The position numbers and the translations under genes were made by a program. Under the pieces are notes generated by a model. The model did no database searches. It was not told where the DNA came from and was given only the letters and a program-made list of their open reading frames with translations. A stretch of DNA of 64,000 bases from the NCBI RefSeq assembly GCF_000023905.1, contig NC_013192.1:1426001-1490000 (forward strand). The letters run 5' to 3'. Source of the DNA: Leptotrichia buccalis C-1013-b (lineage in GTDB: Bacteria > Fusobacteriota > Fusobacteriia > Fusobacteriales > Leptotrichiaceae). Shown here one piece after another: positions 51,600 to 59,018 of this stretch; position 1 is the first letter of the stretch; each line of letters begins with the position of its first letter.

Positions 51600-52679
51600 T
51601 TACAATTCTCTATATTTAACTTCCGTTATTTTCGATATTTTCTCAATAACACCATTTTCTTCCTTTTCTTCCCCAGCGTGACTACTCCCATTCTTATAGA
51701 CAATTTCCTTCAAGTTCAAGTCCGATTTTTTTAGCAGATCCACTGTTAATAAAATCTGATTAAGTACACCTTTTTTATTTTTTGAAACAATAATTACTTC
51801 CGAATTTTTTCTAAATTCACACATAAAGTCCAGAATACTGTAGCTTCCTTCTAGCTTTAACAAAAGTCCGCCAGTAATTCTGACAAAAATATAGTCATTT
51901 TCAACTAATGCCAAATTTATTTTTTCACGCAATTTTATTAAATCACTTTTTTCATTTTCATCCATCTGACCTTTTATAACAATACTTTCTTTTTTTTTCT
52001 TGTCAACTAGCTGTTCTTCATACATTTTTTCAACAAACTTCTTACCAACGTTAATTTCAGTTCCGACTATAAAATATATTTTCCCTTTTTTATCAGTTCT
52101 ATGTCTCACAATGTGATGTCTTCGGCATCTTGCCTCGTAATTTTCATTTGCACCAACCATAACCAATGGATCGTCATAATACGCAGGCTCTCCATTTATA
52201 AGACGCTGGCTCGCATAAGCAGGCTTTCCACAGACTGTACAAATTGCATGCAGCTTGTCAACTTGATCAGCAATGCTCATCAGTTCTGGCACAGGCTCGT
52301 AAGGTTCAGCTCTAAAGCTCATATCCAGCCCAGCGACAATTATCCTTTTCCCATATTCGACATATTTTTTACAAAAATCAACAACTTTTTCTCCAAAAAA
52401 CTGTATTTCATCAATTCCAATCACTTCTGCATCAATGTTTTTTGCCATAATTTCTTCCATTTGGGAAACATCGCTCACAGGATAAGCCCTAAAACTGTTA
52501 TTCCCATGTGAAAACGCTCCATTTTCACCATATCTGTTATCGATGGCATGCTTAAATGCCACTATTTTCTGCTTTGCATACTCAGCCCTTCTAAGTCTTC
52601 TTATAAGTTCCTCGCTTTTCCCTGAAAACATACTTCCAGTAACAACTTCCAATGTTCCAATTTTAGAATTTTGTATCAT
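51600..52679 (-). CDS. tdk: Thymidine kinase fused to a degenerate BioD-like domain
   Basis: Residues 1-200 form a complete type II thymidine kinase: P-loop 'VVTGSMFSGKSEELIRRLRR', 'IGIDEIQFFGEKVVDFC', lasso 'CTVCGKPAYASQRL' and a final Cys-His near 185-188. Such enzymes usually end here, at about 190-200 aa. Another 160 residues follow, which look like dethiobiotin synthetase: 'IYFIVGTEINVGKKFVEKMY' (BioD: GTDTxVGKT), 'YIFVRITGGLLLKLEGSYSI', and 'KKGVLNQILLTVDLLKKSDL' with 'KEIVYKNG'. The P-loop Thr after Lys is replaced by Lys, and the catalytic loop is poor, so the tail is probably not a working BioD. A regulatory or oligomer role is possible. Confidence 0.9.
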   Translation of the reverse strand: MIQNSKIGTLEVVTGSMFSGKSEELIRRLRRAEYAKQKIVAFKHAIDNRYGENGAFSHGNNSFRAYPVSDVSQMEEIMAKNIDAEVIGIDEIQFFGEKVVDFCKKYVEYGKRIIVAGLDMSFRAEPYEPVPELMSIADQVDKLHAICTVCGKPAYASQRLINGEPAYYDDPLVMVGANENYEARCRRHHIVRHRTDKKGKIYFIVGTEINVGKKFVEKMYEEQLVDKKKKESIVIKGQMDENEKSDLIKLREKINLALVENDYIFVRITGGLLLKLEGSYSILDFMCEFRKNSEVIIVSKNKKGVLNQILLTVDLLKKSDLNLKEIVYKNGSSHAGEEKEENGVIEKISKITEVKYREL

Positions 52680-52731: not shown

Positions 52732-52756
52732 TTAAAAAGGGGCTTTTTGCCCCTCA
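52732..52756 (-). terminator. Terminator of the GH13 gene
   Basis: On the minus strand, AGGGGC and GCCCCT form a tight stem around AAAAA, followed by TTTTAAAA. It lies 10 bases after the GH13 stop. Confidence 0.9.
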
Positions 52757-52764
52757 TATATTTT

Positions 52765-55338
52765 TTAATTTTTATTTTGTCTAAATGAATCAAACATATT
52801 TTTTGCATTACTGTATAAAACCTTGACTTCATAAGGTTTTACGTTAATTTGAATTTTTTTATCAGAAATTGCATAATTTTCCTTTAAATTTAGCTGATTT
52901 CTATAAAATCCAAATAATTTTGGCACTTGCAATGATAATGGGTATTCATCTGCACCATTATTTACAACAATTATCATTGATTCATTTCCAGCTGAAATTT
53001 CATAGGAAATAAAGTCCGTATTTGGTCTTGCAGGCGTGAAATCACGTCCCTGATACAGTTTTGCACGTCTGTTCTGGTCAGCTAAATAGGCTGTTATTTC
53101 TGAATCAACACGTCCTTTTGTTTTGGGATCGCTATAAACTTCTAGGATTCTTAATTTCCCATTTTTAAATAAATTTTTATGTTCTTTTCTTATTTTCAGT
53201 AATGCCCTATAATGATTTTCAATATCAGAATTGCTATTTACAGGATACAAAATCCATTTTTGAACTTCATTCACTTCAACAGAATTAGGAAAACTTCTAA
53301 GTCTGTTCATATATTTGCTGATATTGTCAGTTTCTGGTTCATAAGGCTCGTAATCTTCCCACAGCATTGGTTTTCTGTTTCTTGGAGAATCCGCTCCCCA
53401 CATTCCTTTTTCATCTCCATAATAGATAATTGGTGTGGCAGGTAGCATCATTTGCATTGAAACTACTCTTTTTACCTTATTTACTGCTGTTCCATCATAT
53501 AAATCAGGTCTTATGTTCAAGTATCCTTGATCTGACTGATTATTTCTGTCATAAACTCTGTTTGGATTTATCATTCCGCTAAAAATTCTATCTGTATCAA
53601 GCGAGCCTATAAACACTTGCGTCATATTAAAACGAGCACTTGAATATCTATTGTAGATTTCATTTAATTTTGTTGCAAATTCTACTCCGTCAATACGGTA
53701 ATTTGGATTAGTATTTACCGTATATTTTATAATATTATTAACAATGTTGTAATCTGCACCACTGTCATAAACTCCATCTTCAATATCTTTTGTAATATTA
53801 TTTGAAACTTCTCCTGTAATTAACAAATCAGGCTTATATTTTTTCAAATTTTCAGTAATACTTGCGATGTATTCCTTATTCTTATTATCATAATAAACAT
53901 AACGGATTCCATCAATTCCATCATCATATATTTCCTGTTTAAATTTCTCATCAGGTCCTAAAACCCATTTTTTCATTGAATTTTCAAAATAATTTCTAAC
54001 TTCTGGATTGCTTAAATCTAACACAGTATCTTTCATATACCAGTTTGAAAATTCCTTATTATTTATGGCAAAAAATCTACTAGAAGTAATATCTGGAGCT
54101 ACTTCCAGAACTACTTTCAGACCTTTCTGGTGAGCTATTTTCACAAGGCTTGCCAATTGCAAATCGGAATCTGTCCAGACCCACGTTCTTGTATCTCGCA
54201 AATCTTCATCAAGTAAGTTTTTATCAGTTTCAGGATTGAAAATAAGTAAATTTAATTCCATATCTCCATTATTATTGTGAACTTTTGCCTGTATATCAAG
54301 TCCTTTTACTGTTCCAGTCTGTTCCATACTTCCAAAATACGGGTCAACGTGATTAAAATAAATCGTATCGTATTTATGATTTGAAAGCGAATAAAATGGT
54401 GATGACAAAATTATATATTCTACACCTAAATCTTTAATATAATCTAATTTTTCAATAACTCCCTCCAAATCTCCACCGTAATAACGTGTATAATTCTGCA
54501 TATCATTTAATGTATTTTCTTCCCATTCACTTTTTTCCTCATAGTTACTGTTCCATTCGTTTAATGAAAACTGTGGCTTTTCGTTTCCACCCCAATATGC
54601 CATAACCAATTCCCTTTTAGATGTTCCTGAACGTATTTCTCCAGACGGCTCTGAAAAGTCATCTGTCCCAAATTCATTAAAAATCGCATCATTATCAACA
54701 TCGCCATTTCTAAATGAATCAATATAAATCTGGTATCCGACAGAACCTTTTGCCCATTCAGGAATATGCGTCAACTTAGTAGGGCGTGAATATTCAAATT
54801 TATTTACATTTTTAGGATCTTTTGAAATATTTCGTCCCATATAGTATCTTGTCTTGTCATCCGTAAGGACAAAATAGTAGCTTGAAATGCTATTTGGAAC
54901 TTCTGCCATAAAGATTTCATTTCCACCATAATTTCCTATTCCACGCATCATTTTTTTTCCGCCATTGTAAACAACTTCTGCAGAATAAACGTCATTATTT
55001 TTCGTTCTTAACATAATTTTTACATTATTCCCGTCAGCTACTCTGTATTCAGAATCTTCCTTATGAACCAGTGAATTTAAATCAATGACTCCATCATTTC
55101 TTTGACTGTATTTAATTGATTCATTTGATTTTACAGCATCTTCTATTTCATTACTAACACTATTTTCTTCTTCAGTTTTGTTTTTCAAAGTATTTTCTTT
55201 TTTTGCACTAATTAAATAATTTTCATAATTTTCTGGATTATCATTATTTTTTTGTAATTCTTCATTCTGTCCAGAAAATGAAACAATTGAACCTATTAAA
55301 AACAGTAAAACTTTCAGTTTTAATTTAAATAAACTCAT
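52765..55338 (-). CDS. Secreted GH13 amylase homologue with degenerate active site
   Basis: The 857-aa protein has a signal peptide (LKLKVLLFLIGSIVSFSG), a low-complexity Asn/Glu linker, an N-terminal strand-rich module (about 100-180), and a GH13 barrel close to neopullulanase/cyclomaltodextrinase ('GYQIYIDSFRNGD', 'GGDLEGVIEKLDYIKDLGVE', 'VSMQMMLPATPIIYYGDEKG'). Key positions differ. Region I is 'VVLEVAPDI' (usually VxxDxVxNH). Region II is 'DGIDGIRYVYYDN' with Val481 where the nucleophile Asp belongs. Region III keeps Glu510 ('LLITGEVSNN'). Region IV is 'FIGSLDTDRI' with Leu for His and Asp581 kept. It is likely non-hydrolytic and may bind maltodextrin. Confidence 0.9.
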   Translation of the reverse strand: MSLFKLKLKVLLFLIGSIVSFSGQNEELQKNNDNPENYENYLISAKKENTLKNKTEEENSVSNEIEDAVKSNESIKYSQRNDGVIDLNSLVHKEDSEYRVADGNNVKIMLRTKNNDVYSAEVVYNGGKKMMRGIGNYGGNEIFMAEVPNSISSYYFVLTDDKTRYYMGRNISKDPKNVNKFEYSRPTKLTHIPEWAKGSVGYQIYIDSFRNGDVDNDAIFNEFGTDDFSEPSGEIRSGTSKRELVMAYWGGNEKPQFSLNEWNSNYEEKSEWEENTLNDMQNYTRYYGGDLEGVIEKLDYIKDLGVEYIILSSPFYSLSNHKYDTIYFNHVDPYFGSMEQTGTVKGLDIQAKVHNNNGDMELNLLIFNPETDKNLLDEDLRDTRTWVWTDSDLQLASLVKIAHQKGLKVVLEVAPDITSSRFFAINNKEFSNWYMKDTVLDLSNPEVRNYFENSMKKWVLGPDEKFKQEIYDDGIDGIRYVYYDNKNKEYIASITENLKKYKPDLLITGEVSNNITKDIEDGVYDSGADYNIVNNIIKYTVNTNPNYRIDGVEFATKLNEIYNRYSSARFNMTQVFIGSLDTDRIFSGMINPNRVYDRNNQSDQGYLNIRPDLYDGTAVNKVKRVVSMQMMLPATPIIYYGDEKGMWGADSPRNRKPMLWEDYEPYEPETDNISKYMNRLRSFPNSVEVNEVQKWILYPVNSNSDIENHYRALLKIRKEHKNLFKNGKLRILEVYSDPKTKGRVDSEITAYLADQNRRAKLYQGRDFTPARPNTDFISYEISAGNESMIIVVNNGADEYPLSLQVPKLFGFYRNQLNLKENYAISDKKIQINVKPYEVKVLYSNAKNMFDSFRQNKN

Positions 55339-55396
55339 ATTTCTCCTCTATTCACTTTAATTTCCCTAGCTGCAGCCAGACAAAAAACAGTTATTT

Positions 55397-56071
55397 TTAT
55401 ATTACTAATTTTTTATTTATTATACTATTTTCAAAATTTTTATTTTCATTTTTATTCGCAAACTGCTCTAAAATGCTATTTTTTATTTCTCTAAGTGTAG
55501 CTCCTGTCGTTACAATATCATCAAGTATCAAAATATTTTTACCTCTAAAATCAACATTTCCAGAAATTCTAAAAGCACCTTTTATATTTTTATTTCTTTC
55601 CTCTTCATCCAAAATTTCAGCCATTTTTTTCGTATTTTTAACTCGCTCAATTTGAACATAATTTACTTTCAGACAATTTAAAATTTCGTCAACCTGATTA
55701 TACCCTCTCTCATTTTTCCTTTTTCTGCTGACAGGCACGTTTACAACAATATCAATCTTTTCTCTTTTTAAAATATAATAAAATTCATCCTTTATTAATT
55801 CAGCAATTAATTTTGCCATAATTTTTTTTCGATTGTATTTATATGAAAAAATAAGTTTCTTAAATTCTTTATTGTAATCCCAAACATAATAAATATTGTT
55901 TAATTTTCGTAATTTTTTTAGACTTTTCAGAATATTTTTCGTATCTTTCGATACAATGCCGTACTCAACTAACTCCTCCCCAGAAATTATATCCCGATTT
56001 CTAAATAAAACACTCTTAAAATTAAATATTATTTTAGTAAAAATTTTAGCAACTCTCGACTGGATCTTCAA
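55397..56071 (-). CDS. comF: ComF-family phosphoribosyltransferase-like protein
   Basis: The 224-aa protein has the ComF core 'VWDYNKEFKKLIFSYKYNRK', 'VNVPVSRKRKNERGYNQVDE', a KKMAEILDEEERNKNIKGAF segment, and the PRPP loop 'ILILDDIVTTGATLREIKNS'. ComF supports DNA uptake and replication restart. The usual N-terminal four-Cys zinc finger is absent. Instead a separate small zinc-ribbon gene ends inside its 5' end. The frame opens with a TTG at 56071 and no ribosome-binding site, so it may rely on coupling from the upstream gene. The true start is uncertain. Confidence 0.85.
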   Translation of the reverse strand: MKIQSRVAKIFTKIIFNFKSVLFRNRDIISGEELVEYGIVSKDTKNILKSLKKLRKLNNIYYVWDYNKEFKKLIFSYKYNRKKIMAKLIAELIKDEFYYILKREKIDIVVNVPVSRKRKNERGYNQVDEILNCLKVNYVQIERVKNTKKMAEILDEEERNKNIKGAFRISGNVDFRGKNILILDDIVTTGATLREIKNSILEQFANKNENKNFENSIINKKLVI

Positions 56072-56745: not shown

Positions 56746-57960
56746 TTAATCATATAAAAACACTTTTGTTGCTATATTATTCAAATTTAATGAATTATAT
56801 AATAATCCTTTTTCCTCTAATATTTTTTTGGCTAACTCTTTTATTTTTTTATCATTCCCTTTTTTCTGATAATAACCCATCATTCCTAATATTGCTTCCG
56901 CATTCTTCTGTTCAATGCCTCTTAAAAATAGTTCTTTAGCTTTTTCTTCATTACCTTCGGATATTTCTAACATTCCTAATGTACTTGCTGATTGTGAATT
57001 TCCTGCATTTATTCCTGCTTGATACCATTTTTTTGCTTCTAATTTATTATTTTTCTCTTCATAAACATTTCCAATCTTATATGCCGCCATTCCCATATTT
57101 CCTTTTTTATAAGCGATTTCGTAATACTTCATAGCTTCTGAATTATTGTCTAAAAATTTATACATATTTCCTAGAAAATAGTATCCTTCAAATCCATACT
57201 CTAATAATTTTTCATATTTTTTCTTTGCTTCTTCGTATTTATTTATTCTTATCAAGGAATCTGCTTCATCAATTAATTCAAATTTTTTATTTTCATTCTT
57301 ATTTCCTAACATCAAGTCTATTTTTAACATTATTTCATCATCTATTCCATTCATTTTATTTTTTCCAAACATTTTTTCCTTTAAGCTATGAATCTTACTC
57401 TTATTTCTTTCTCTATAATAAATCGTCATAAGATAATATATTCCTTCAGCATCATTTCCATCTTCCACTTTTAACAAATATTTTTTTGCCTCATCAATTT
57501 TATTTTCACTTATTAATAATTTCCCCAAATCAATGTTAGAAAATTTATCGCCTTTTTCAATACCTTTTAAATACCATTTTTTCGCCAAATTAAAATTCCC
57601 TTTTCTATAAGCAATACTCCCCAATATATATGCTGCTTGAGAATTTCCTTTATCATATGCAATTTTGTATTTCTTTTCACCTTCATTCTTATCAATAAAA
57701 TTGTAGTATAAATAAGCAATACTTAAATATGCACCATTATCATATTTTTTTGCTTCCTCATAATATTTTTCAGCATTTTTATAATTACCTTCATCTCTTT
57801 CTACATCTCCTAACGATATTAATTTCAGATATTTTTTATCCTCATTTTTAACTCTATTTGCGGGTTTAGAGCAACTTATTATAGTAAAACTTAATAACCA
57901 TAAAAATAAAATAGTTAGTAAATATTTACTATAAAATTTTTTTAATTTCCACAAAATCAT
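56746..57960 (-). CDS. Sel1/TPR-repeat lipoprotein
   Basis: The 404-aa protein has a lipoprotein signal (LLTILFLWLLSFTIISCSKP, lipobox ISC). About ten 35-residue Sel1/TPR repeats follow, for example 'KNAEKYYEEAKKYDNGAYLS', 'NLAKKWYLKGIEKGDKFSNI', 'SEAMKYYEIAYKKGNMGMAA' and 'LEAKKWYQAGINAGNSQSAS'. It is membrane-anchored and likely a protein-interaction scaffold at the envelope. It is related in repeat pattern to the cytosolic protein at 26145. It has no close operon partner. Confidence 0.88.
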   Translation of the reverse strand: MILWKLKKFYSKYLLTILFLWLLSFTIISCSKPANRVKNEDKKYLKLISLGDVERDEGNYKNAEKYYEEAKKYDNGAYLSIAYLYYNFIDKNEGEKKYKIAYDKGNSQAAYILGSIAYRKGNFNLAKKWYLKGIEKGDKFSNIDLGKLLISENKIDEAKKYLLKVEDGNDAEGIYYLMTIYYRERNKSKIHSLKEKMFGKNKMNGIDDEIMLKIDLMLGNKNENKKFELIDEADSLIRINKYEEAKKKYEKLLEYGFEGYYFLGNMYKFLDNNSEAMKYYEIAYKKGNMGMAAYKIGNVYEEKNNKLEAKKWYQAGINAGNSQSASTLGMLEISEGNEEKAKELFLRGIEQKNAEAILGMMGYYQKKGNDKKIKELAKKILEEKGLLYNSLNLNNIATKVFLYD

Positions 57961-58022
57961 AACAGTTCTCCTATTTTCTAAACTTTCTTTTTAAAAAATA
58001 CTATTTTTTAAGATTTGTATTC

Positions 58023-58575
58023 TCATTTTATTATTTTCTCTTTTCCCAAAAATTTTTCCTTATCTTTCCACTCTACTCCACTTTCTTCAAATATTTTCTC
58101 AATTTCATTTACAAAATTTTCATTTACTTTAAAATTTTCTATTTCCTCATCAATTTTATTTGGATTAATATACCAGACAGAAATATAGTCCATATCATTC
58201 TCATATTTTGTTATAAGTTCTCTGTATTTTTCTTTTGGATAAATATAAGGTTCATGAGCATAATCATTTTTTCTGTATTCAAATCTAGTTGCTAATAAAT
58301 AACAAAATTCTTCTATTGAATTAGAATAAAATTCTTCTAAATTTTTAGTTCCCACTAACATTCTTATTGGAAATTCTTCATGTGGAAATTCAATCATATC
58401 ACACTTATAAAGTTTGTAAATCATTTCTACAAAAAATATCCAATATTCTTTTGTATCCTTTAATGGTTGCATTTCCTAATGTCATACCGATAAATATCCA
58501 TTCTCTATCATCGTCTACATCCATAATAAACCATTGTGAAAATTCTTGTAATGCAACTGCTTCCCATTTTTTCAT
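58023..58575 (-). pseudogene. Frameshifted hypothetical gene
   Basis: An ATG at 58575 opens 'MKKWEAVALQEFSQWF' and 'DVDDDREWIFIGMTLGN'. One base out of frame, 'MQPLKDTKEYWIFFVEMIYK' continues at 58472 and reads to 58023. The two parts join naturally after 'MTLGN', so a single-base change in GGAAATG probably broke one gene of about 183 codons. The last 149 codons alone could still be made from the ATG at 58472. Acidic and aromatic-rich; no family recognised. The style resembles small immunity-type proteins, but that is only an impression. Confidence 0.55.
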
Positions 58576-58613
58576 ACCTAAATTCCTTTTTAATTCTCAT
58601 TCAAAATATTTTC

Positions 58614-59018
58614 TTATAAAAATTCAAACGAAAGTTCACCTTCAAAAAAAATAACATCATCTTTTTTATAAGTCACATCATTTTCAAATTCAACTAAAAT
58701 TTCTGAATCTGAAATAGATGATTCTAGCAGTAAAGAATCTGAATTTATATGTTTTACCACTCTTACTACAGCTTCTATATGTGGCGATTTTGGAAAAGGC
58801 TGTACAGCTCTCAATTCGCTATCCACTTTCAAACTTTCGCATACATATTGCATAAATAATTTTCCTTTGACAATATCTCCTTCTTTAATAAAATTTTTTA
58901 CATCAAATTCTACAAATGAAACATTCCATTTTTTGTCATTATTTTTTAGTTCTTTTACTACTGCCATATCGTAGTCATATTCAAATGTCCATAACTTCTC
59001 TATTAAATATTTTTTCAT
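58614..59018 (-). CDS. Hypothetical protein, 134 aa
   Basis: The soluble protein has no signal peptide or membrane segment. It appears rich in strands: 'FEYDYDMAVVKELKNNDKKW', 'FIKEGDIVKGKLFMQYVC', 'IEAVVRVVKHINSDSLLLES' and 'YKKDDVIFFEGELSFEFL'. The 'GDIVKGKL' and 'VVRV' pattern suggests a small beta-barrel. I do not recognise a family. It lies between the frameshifted gene and rnhB on the same strand. Confidence 0.6.
   Translation of the reverse strand: MKKYLIEKLWTFEYDYDMAVVKELKNNDKKWNVSFVEFDVKNFIKEGDIVKGKLFMQYVCESLKVDSELRAVQPFPKSPHIEAVVRVVKHINSDSLLLESSISDSEILVEFENDVTYKKDDVIFFEGELSFEFL

What the first reader, a model, noticed from the sequence alone, without database searches (positions are those of the whole stretch)
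52765..55338. Secreted GH13 protein without its catalytic nucleophile
The barrel is clearly GH13, but region II reads 'GIRYVYYDN', placing Val481 at the nucleophile Asp. Region I has lost the NH pair and region IV the His. Glu510 and Asp581 remain. The 857-aa frame is intact with a good ribosome-binding site and terminator, so it is kept, not decaying. A maltodextrin-binding or adhesin role is possible.
Basis: partly seen in the sequence, partly recalled or inferred. Interest (0 to 1): 0.62.

Follow-up and report, generated by a model that had tools for sequence, protein, structure and literature searches.

The report
Inactivated secreted amylase relative, Leptotrichia buccalis
A mouth bacterium and its relatives export a starch-enzyme look-alike whose cutting residues are gone, yet evolution keeps the rest of the protein almost unchanged, so it probably holds on to sugars or partner proteins instead of digesting starch.

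Summary
Window 52765-55338(-) of the L. buccalis C-1013-b chromosome encodes an intact 857-aa protein with a signal peptide, a CBM34-like domain and a GH13 barrel nearest neopullulanase. No acid occupies the nucleophile position: it is Val481, or a one-residue deletion, depending on the alignment. CSR-I Asn-His is Asp-Ile, CSR-IV His is Leu, and the TVAII Asp465 equivalent is Ser; Glu510 and Asp581 remain. This is a family trait: all 22 Leptotrichiaceae orthologues found lack the nucleophile, while Glu510 and Asp581 are not strictly kept. Pairwise dN/dS is 0.06-0.19, close to the intact cytosolic paralogue (0.04-0.14).

The family extends across Fusobacteriota, mostly as lipoproteins, most of them also dead. 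Two other genera share the RluD-RnhB-YraN-ComF gene order. One relative (G095) keeps every catalytic residue and is sister to the rest. In the five of 98 genomes that carry Glucodextran_C (PF09985), such a protein lies directly upstream of the GH13 gene. Best reading: an exported GH13 pseudoenzyme, derived from a surface neopullulanase, that binds alpha-glucan or a partner. Loss of catalysis is well supported; ligand binding is inferred. Both AlphaFold models were poor.

The parts
52765..55338 (-). Coding sequence, 857 aa, exported GH13-derived pseudoenzyme (end includes the stop codon)
55273..55338 (-). Signal sequence, about residues 1-22 (MSLFKLKLKVLLFLIGSIVSFS), no lipobox Cys
   Evidence: read from the sequence; relatives outside the family carry a lipobox at this place
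55114..55272 (-). Asn/Glu/Lys-rich linker, residues 23-75, no invariant residue, near-neutral substitution
54802..55077 (-). CBM34-like N-terminal domain (PF02903), residues 88-179
   Evidence: 24.2 bits against cut-off 23
54688..54714 (-). Residues 209-217 FRNGDVDND, retained equivalent of the TVAII metal-site residues
   Evidence: site names from my knowledge of TVAII
53239..54759 (-). GH13 (beta/alpha)8 barrel, about residues 194-700
54088..54114 (-). CSR-I, residues 409-417 VVLEVAPDI; Asn-His pair lost
53884..53919 (-). CSR-II, residues 474-485 GIDGIRYVYYDN; Arg479 kept, nucleophile Asp lost
53803..53820 (-). CSR-III, residues 507-512; acid/base Glu510 kept here (Asp in some orthologues), following Trp lost
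53587..53604 (-). CSR-IV, residues 579-584 SLDTDR; His lost, Asp581 kept
52804..53238 (-). C-terminal region, residues 701-845, helical stretch then beta domain
   Evidence: secondary structure (low confidence); aligned to TVAII domain C
55343..55348 (-). Ribosome-binding site GAGGAG
   Evidence: read
52738..52754 (-). GC hairpin after the stop codon, possible terminator with a short T tract on this strand
55397..56071 (-). comF, upstream neighbour; part of the shared RluD-RnhB-YraN-ComF order

Best explanation
This is an exported pseudoenzyme of the alpha-amylase family. An ancestral surface lipoprotein neopullulanase of Fusobacteriota lost the sugar-gripping residues of subsite -1 (CSR-I His, CSR-IV His, Asp465 equivalent) and, in most lineages, the nucleophile. 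The fold and the substrate-side loops stayed under strong purifying selection. In Leptotrichiaceae it became a protein with an ordinary signal sequence. It cannot form the glycosyl-enzyme intermediate of the retaining GH13 mechanism. Most likely it now works by binding: alpha-glucan or maltodextrin held by the CBM34-like domain and the remains of the cleft, without cleavage. Shown by sequence: the losses, their conservation, the purifying selection, the relation to an intact lipoprotein, and the Glucodextran_C pairing in other lineages. Inferred: no activity, export, glycan binding, and any gain for the cell.
For: Nucleophile absent in the window protein and in all 22 Leptotrichiaceae orthologues found. 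Seven subsite -1 positions tabulated in 32 sequences. Pairwise dN/dS 0.06-0.19 against 0.04-0.14 for the intact paralogue in the same six genomes. Fast linker but conserved barrel. Cleft-side loops 56% invariant against 32% for opposite loops and 33% for helices. PF02903 (CBM34) retained. G095 relative L068 with an intact active site as sister of the pseudoenzyme clade, 96/85 support. Synteny RluD-RnhB-YraN-ComF shared with genera g24 and g25. Glucodextran_C gene directly upstream of the GH13 gene in all 5 of 98 genomes that hold that family, and GH13 fused to Glucodextran_C in one G095 protein.
Against: The three lost subsite -1 residues grip glucose in TVAII, so sugar affinity in the cleft may be lost too. 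Some relatives (g25) also lost the stacking Tyr and the CSR-II Arg, so the ligand may not be a sugar in all lineages. Leptotrichiaceae lack the Glucodextran_C partner. The neighbours in Leptotrichia are housekeeping genes, not sugar transport. No usable structure. No binding or activity data.
Confidence: 0.5

Rival explanations
1. Pseudoenzyme whose barrel is a scaffold or partner for another protein (an envelope protein or transporter), as 4F2hc and rBAT are for amino acid transporters. The conserved cleft side is a protein interface and no sugar is bound.
For: Subsite -1 sugar contacts lost across the family. Housekeeping gene neighbourhood in Leptotrichia. Precedent: the GH13-type ectodomains of 4F2hc and rBAT, where no glucosidase activity was shown and glycan binding was not detected for 4F2hc (PMC8537225).
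Against: CBM34-like domain retained. The partner gene in five distant genomes is a carbohydrate-module family. No candidate protein partner found in Leptotrichia.
Confidence: 0.3
2. Still an enzyme, with a rearranged active site using other acids (for example Glu510, Asp581, Asp416 or Asp484).
For: BmaN1 of Bacillus megaterium lacks the canonical nucleophile and stabiliser yet hydrolyses starch; its nucleophile may have moved one residue (PMC5347038). Glu510 and Asp581 are kept in most orthologues, Asp416 and Glu412 in all.
Against: No acid lies at residues 480-483, and Asp484 is Ser, Lys or Arg in orthologues. Glu510 is Asp in four orthologues and Asp581 is Gly in one. Both subsite -1 His and the Asp465 equivalent are also gone.
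Confidence: 0.1
3. A decaying gene, intact only by recent loss.
For: Catalytic residues are missing, and Leptotrichiaceae genera with small genomes lack the gene altogether.
Against: Open full-length frames in orthologues of six genera, dN/dS 0.06-0.19, and losses shared at family depth.
Confidence: 0.03

Closest known systems
Neopullulanase / TVAII group of GH13 (PDB 1jf6, 1bvz, 1j0h)
   Same: Best sequence and fold matches: CBM34-like domain, barrel, C domain, metal-site motif, YYGDE segment.
   Different: Nucleophile, CSR-I Asn-His, CSR-IV His, the Trp after the acid/base and the Asp465 equivalent are lost; the CSR-V MPKLN-type motif is not present; carries a signal sequence and large insertions.
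Intact lipoprotein relative in Fusobacteriota genome G095 (L068:5120-7720)
   Same: Same domain order, 40% identity over the barrel, lipoprotein, shared 591-615 segment.
   Different: All tabulated catalytic and subsite -1 residues kept.
4F2hc and rBAT ectodomains (SLC3)
   Same: GH13 fold without demonstrated glucosidase activity; 4F2hc lacks all three catalytic residues (PMC8537225).
   Different: Animal membrane proteins bound to a transporter; no CBM34; weak sequence match only.
BmaN1 group of GH13_45
   Same: Bacterial exported GH13 protein without the canonical nucleophile (PMC5347038).
   Different: BmaN1 is active and has an Asp one residue downstream; here there is no acid at 480-483.

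Membership tests
GH13 fold superfamily (PF00128) | Match to the family profile above its cut-off, barrel fold | tested here: met
   91.3 bits against cut-off 22; VIA-align Z 22.1 to TVAII over 475 residues, rmsd 9.7, on a low-confidence model
GH13 active retaining enzyme | Asp nucleophile on beta4 in CSR-II | tested here: not met
   Val481 or a deletion at that column; absent in all 22 orthologues
GH13 active retaining enzyme | Glu acid/base on beta5 in CSR-III | tested here: met
   Glu510; Asp in L022, L024, L025, L026
GH13 active retaining enzyme | Asp transition-state stabiliser in CSR-IV | tested here: met
   Asp581; Gly in L023
GH13 active retaining enzyme | His residues of CSR-I and CSR-IV at subsite -1 | tested here: not met
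   Ile417 and Leu580
GH13_20 neopullulanase subfamily | CSR-V motif MPKLN or close variant (motif given in PMC11239784) | tested here: not met
   Window protein reads VLDLS there; the intact relative L068 reads LPKLD
GH13_20 neopullulanase subfamily | N-terminal CBM34 (PF02903) | tested here: met
   24.2 bits, cut-off 23
BmaN1-type aberrant triad (GH13_45) | Acid one residue downstream of the lost nucleophile | tested here: not met
   Residues 480-483 are Tyr-Val-Tyr-Tyr
Alpha-glucan-binding protein | Measured binding of starch or maltodextrin | not testable with these tools
   needs purified protein
Lipoprotein | Lipobox Cys at the end of the signal sequence | tested here: not met
   No Cys in the signal region of the window protein; Cys present in most relatives outside Leptotrichiaceae

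The most novel reading that the evidence does not exclude
A phylum-level family of exported GH13 pseudoenzymes in Fusobacteriota acts as a non-cleaving alpha-glucan receptor or envelope scaffold. It arose from a surface neopullulanase that once worked beside a Glucodextran_C lipoprotein, and its nucleophile was lost more than once while the fold was kept.
Probability: 0.35. Interest if true: 0.6.

Novelty: new variant of a known kind. Interest (0 to 1): 0.42.

Why it matters
Pseudoenzymes of the alpha-amylase family are best known from animal transporter subunits. Here is a bacterial exported one, kept under selection close to that on an intact paralogue, with an intact sister and intermediate relatives in the same phylum. 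That makes it possible to ask step by step how a secreted hydrolase turns into a non-catalytic protein. It also cautions that gene annotation would name these proteins as amylases in oral bacteria although their catalytic residues are missing.

Tried and rejected
AlphaFold2 on the full protein with the 6 sequences that the tool admits: mean pLDDT 52.6. On residues 76-857: 45.8. The about 200-aa neighbour in other genera looked like a partner but is a general Fusobacteriota protein absent from Leptotrichiaceae, so it was dropped. Asp484 as a shifted nucleophile: rejected, not conserved. Plasmids hold no relative at E 1e-20. First orthologue extraction script ignored strand and failed, redone. 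Literature searches in the open-access library found no description of this Fusobacteriota family; subscription papers were not searchable. Foldseek or VIA matches do not exclude other GH13 subfamilies.

Full report
What is there. The window lies in a single 2,465,610-base chromosome. That length is the published one of Leptotrichia buccalis C-1013-b (PMC3035221), so I take the organism to be that strain. The ORF 52765-55338(-) is intact, 857 aa, with an ATG start. GAGGAG lies 4 nt before the start codon and a GC hairpin follows the stop codon. The protein has a signal sequence without a lipobox Cys, a variable Asn/Glu/Lys-rich linker (23-75), a CBM34-like domain (PF02903, 24.2 bits, cut-off 23), a GH13 barrel (PF00128, 91.3 bits) and a C-terminal region. 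The nearest solved structures are TVAII and neopullulanase by sequence and by fold comparison of a low-confidence model.

The active site. Against TVAII the region II alignment is ungapped and Val481 faces nucleophile Asp325. Against the intact Fusobacteriota paralogues the alignment prefers a one-residue deletion at that column. The finding's 'Val481 at the nucleophile' is therefore one of two readings; in both no acid is present. CSR-I Asn-His is Asp416-Ile417 and its Asp is Glu412. CSR-IV His is Leu580. The Trp after the acid/base is Ser512 and the TVAII Asp465 equivalent is Ser651 (TVAII site names are from my knowledge, placed by the alignment). Glu510, Asp581, Arg479, His321 and Tyr323 remain. 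Asp484, the nearest Asp downstream, is Ser, Lys or Arg in some orthologues.

A family trait under selection. The family search found 22 Leptotrichiaceae orthologues in six genera (named records include L. hongkongensis and Leptotrichia oral taxon 879). All 22 lack the nucleophile; the CSR-IV comparison leaves out one, L027, whose sequence stops before it. Glu510 is Asp in four and Asp581 is Gly in one. Pairwise Nei-Gojobori dN/dS over six genomes is 0.06-0.19, against 0.04-0.14 for the intact cytosolic paralogue in the same genomes. The linker evolves near-neutrally and the barrel slowly. Cleft-side loops are 56% invariant, opposite loops 32%, helices 33%. The loop assignment comes from the low-confidence model, and some cleft-side residues are structural, so this is only consistent with a kept binding face.

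Relatives across the phylum. A profile search of 98 Fusobacteriota genomes found further relatives outside Leptotrichiaceae. Most begin with a lipobox, for example LFMGC, IAGC, LGGC, ISSC, FSGC; for L083 the longer reading frame from 1370 and for L082 the contig end leave this open. G095 (L068) keeps all tabulated active-site residues. The rest show altered sites: g25 reads GYYV, L069 GYRIEAS, L079 GYVIK. L070 keeps the nucleophile Asp but has lost the CSR-IV pair and has Asp for the acid/base Glu. In a tree built without the four catalytic regions, all altered sequences form one side of a branch with 96/85 support, with L068 between them and the paralogues. Several branches are long and the program warns about them. 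CSR-I His, CSR-IV His and the Asp465 equivalent each need one change on the tree; the nucleophile needs two, meaning loss plus regain in L070 or more than one loss. The different residues and gap lengths at region II favour repeated loss, but this is not proven.

Context. Genera g24 and g25 carry the GH13 lipoprotein after RluD-RnhB-YraN-ComF, and L. hongkongensis carries its orthologue after the same four genes (families checked). In the window the same order holds with three extra ORFs between RnhB and YraN. This supports orthology across families. In all five genomes with Glucodextran_C (PF09985), one copy lies directly upstream of the GH13 gene on the same strand, about 30-150 bases apart. 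These copies have lipoprotein-like starts by eye. G095 also has a lipoprotein with GH13 and Glucodextran_C fused. Leptotrichiaceae lack Glucodextran_C. The about 200-aa neighbour of the other genera is a general phylum protein and is not counted as a partner.

Mechanism. The retaining GH13 mechanism needs an Asp nucleophile, a Glu acid/base and an Asp stabiliser (stated in PMC8537225). With no nucleophile and the subsite -1 contacts gone, classical hydrolysis is not expected. I estimate about 0.9 that the protein does not hydrolyse alpha-glucans at a physiological rate. The caveat is BmaN1, reported active without the canonical nucleophile, with an Asp one residue downstream (PMC5347038); no such acid exists here. 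For what the protein does instead, I commit to non-cleaving alpha-glucan binding at 0.5, on the retained CBM34-like domain, the conserved cleft side and the ancestral pairing with a carbohydrate module. A protein-scaffold role as in 4F2hc follows at 0.3. The housekeeping neighbourhood and the loss of sugar contacts speak for the second.

Novelty. GH13 pseudoenzymes are known, so the kind is known. I found no report of this exported Fusobacteriota family in the library searched, which lacks most subscription journals. I rate it a new variant of a known kind, interest 0.42.

Noticed in passing
window 51600-52679 (-): Thymidine kinase with a C-terminal extension of about 170 aa that weakly matches AAA_26 (E 2e-5, below the family cut-off).
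   Followed up: no
window 56746-59018 (-): Three ORFs (a TPR-repeat protein and two without a Pfam match) sit between RnhB and YraN, where L. hongkongensis (L037) shows none.
   Followed up: partly
L093:3999-6677 (-), genome G095: Lipoprotein with a GH13 domain fused to Glucodextran_C.
   Followed up: partly
L104:8065-11118 (+), L. buccalis chromosome: Intact 1017-aa GH13 paralogue without a signal sequence, with an AMPK1_CBM glycogen-recognition domain, between an aminopeptidase gene and radC; present in every Leptotrichiaceae genome searched.
   Followed up: partly
L071:4378-4986 and relatives: About 200-aa uncharacterised protein found in 58 of 98 Fusobacteriota genomes, absent from Leptotrichiaceae, no Pfam family.
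   Followed up: partly
L080, L081 (GH13 genes; L039 is another record of L080): Most degraded members: CSR-III is missing from the alignment and only the YYGDEKGMWG segment is strongly kept.
   Followed up: partly
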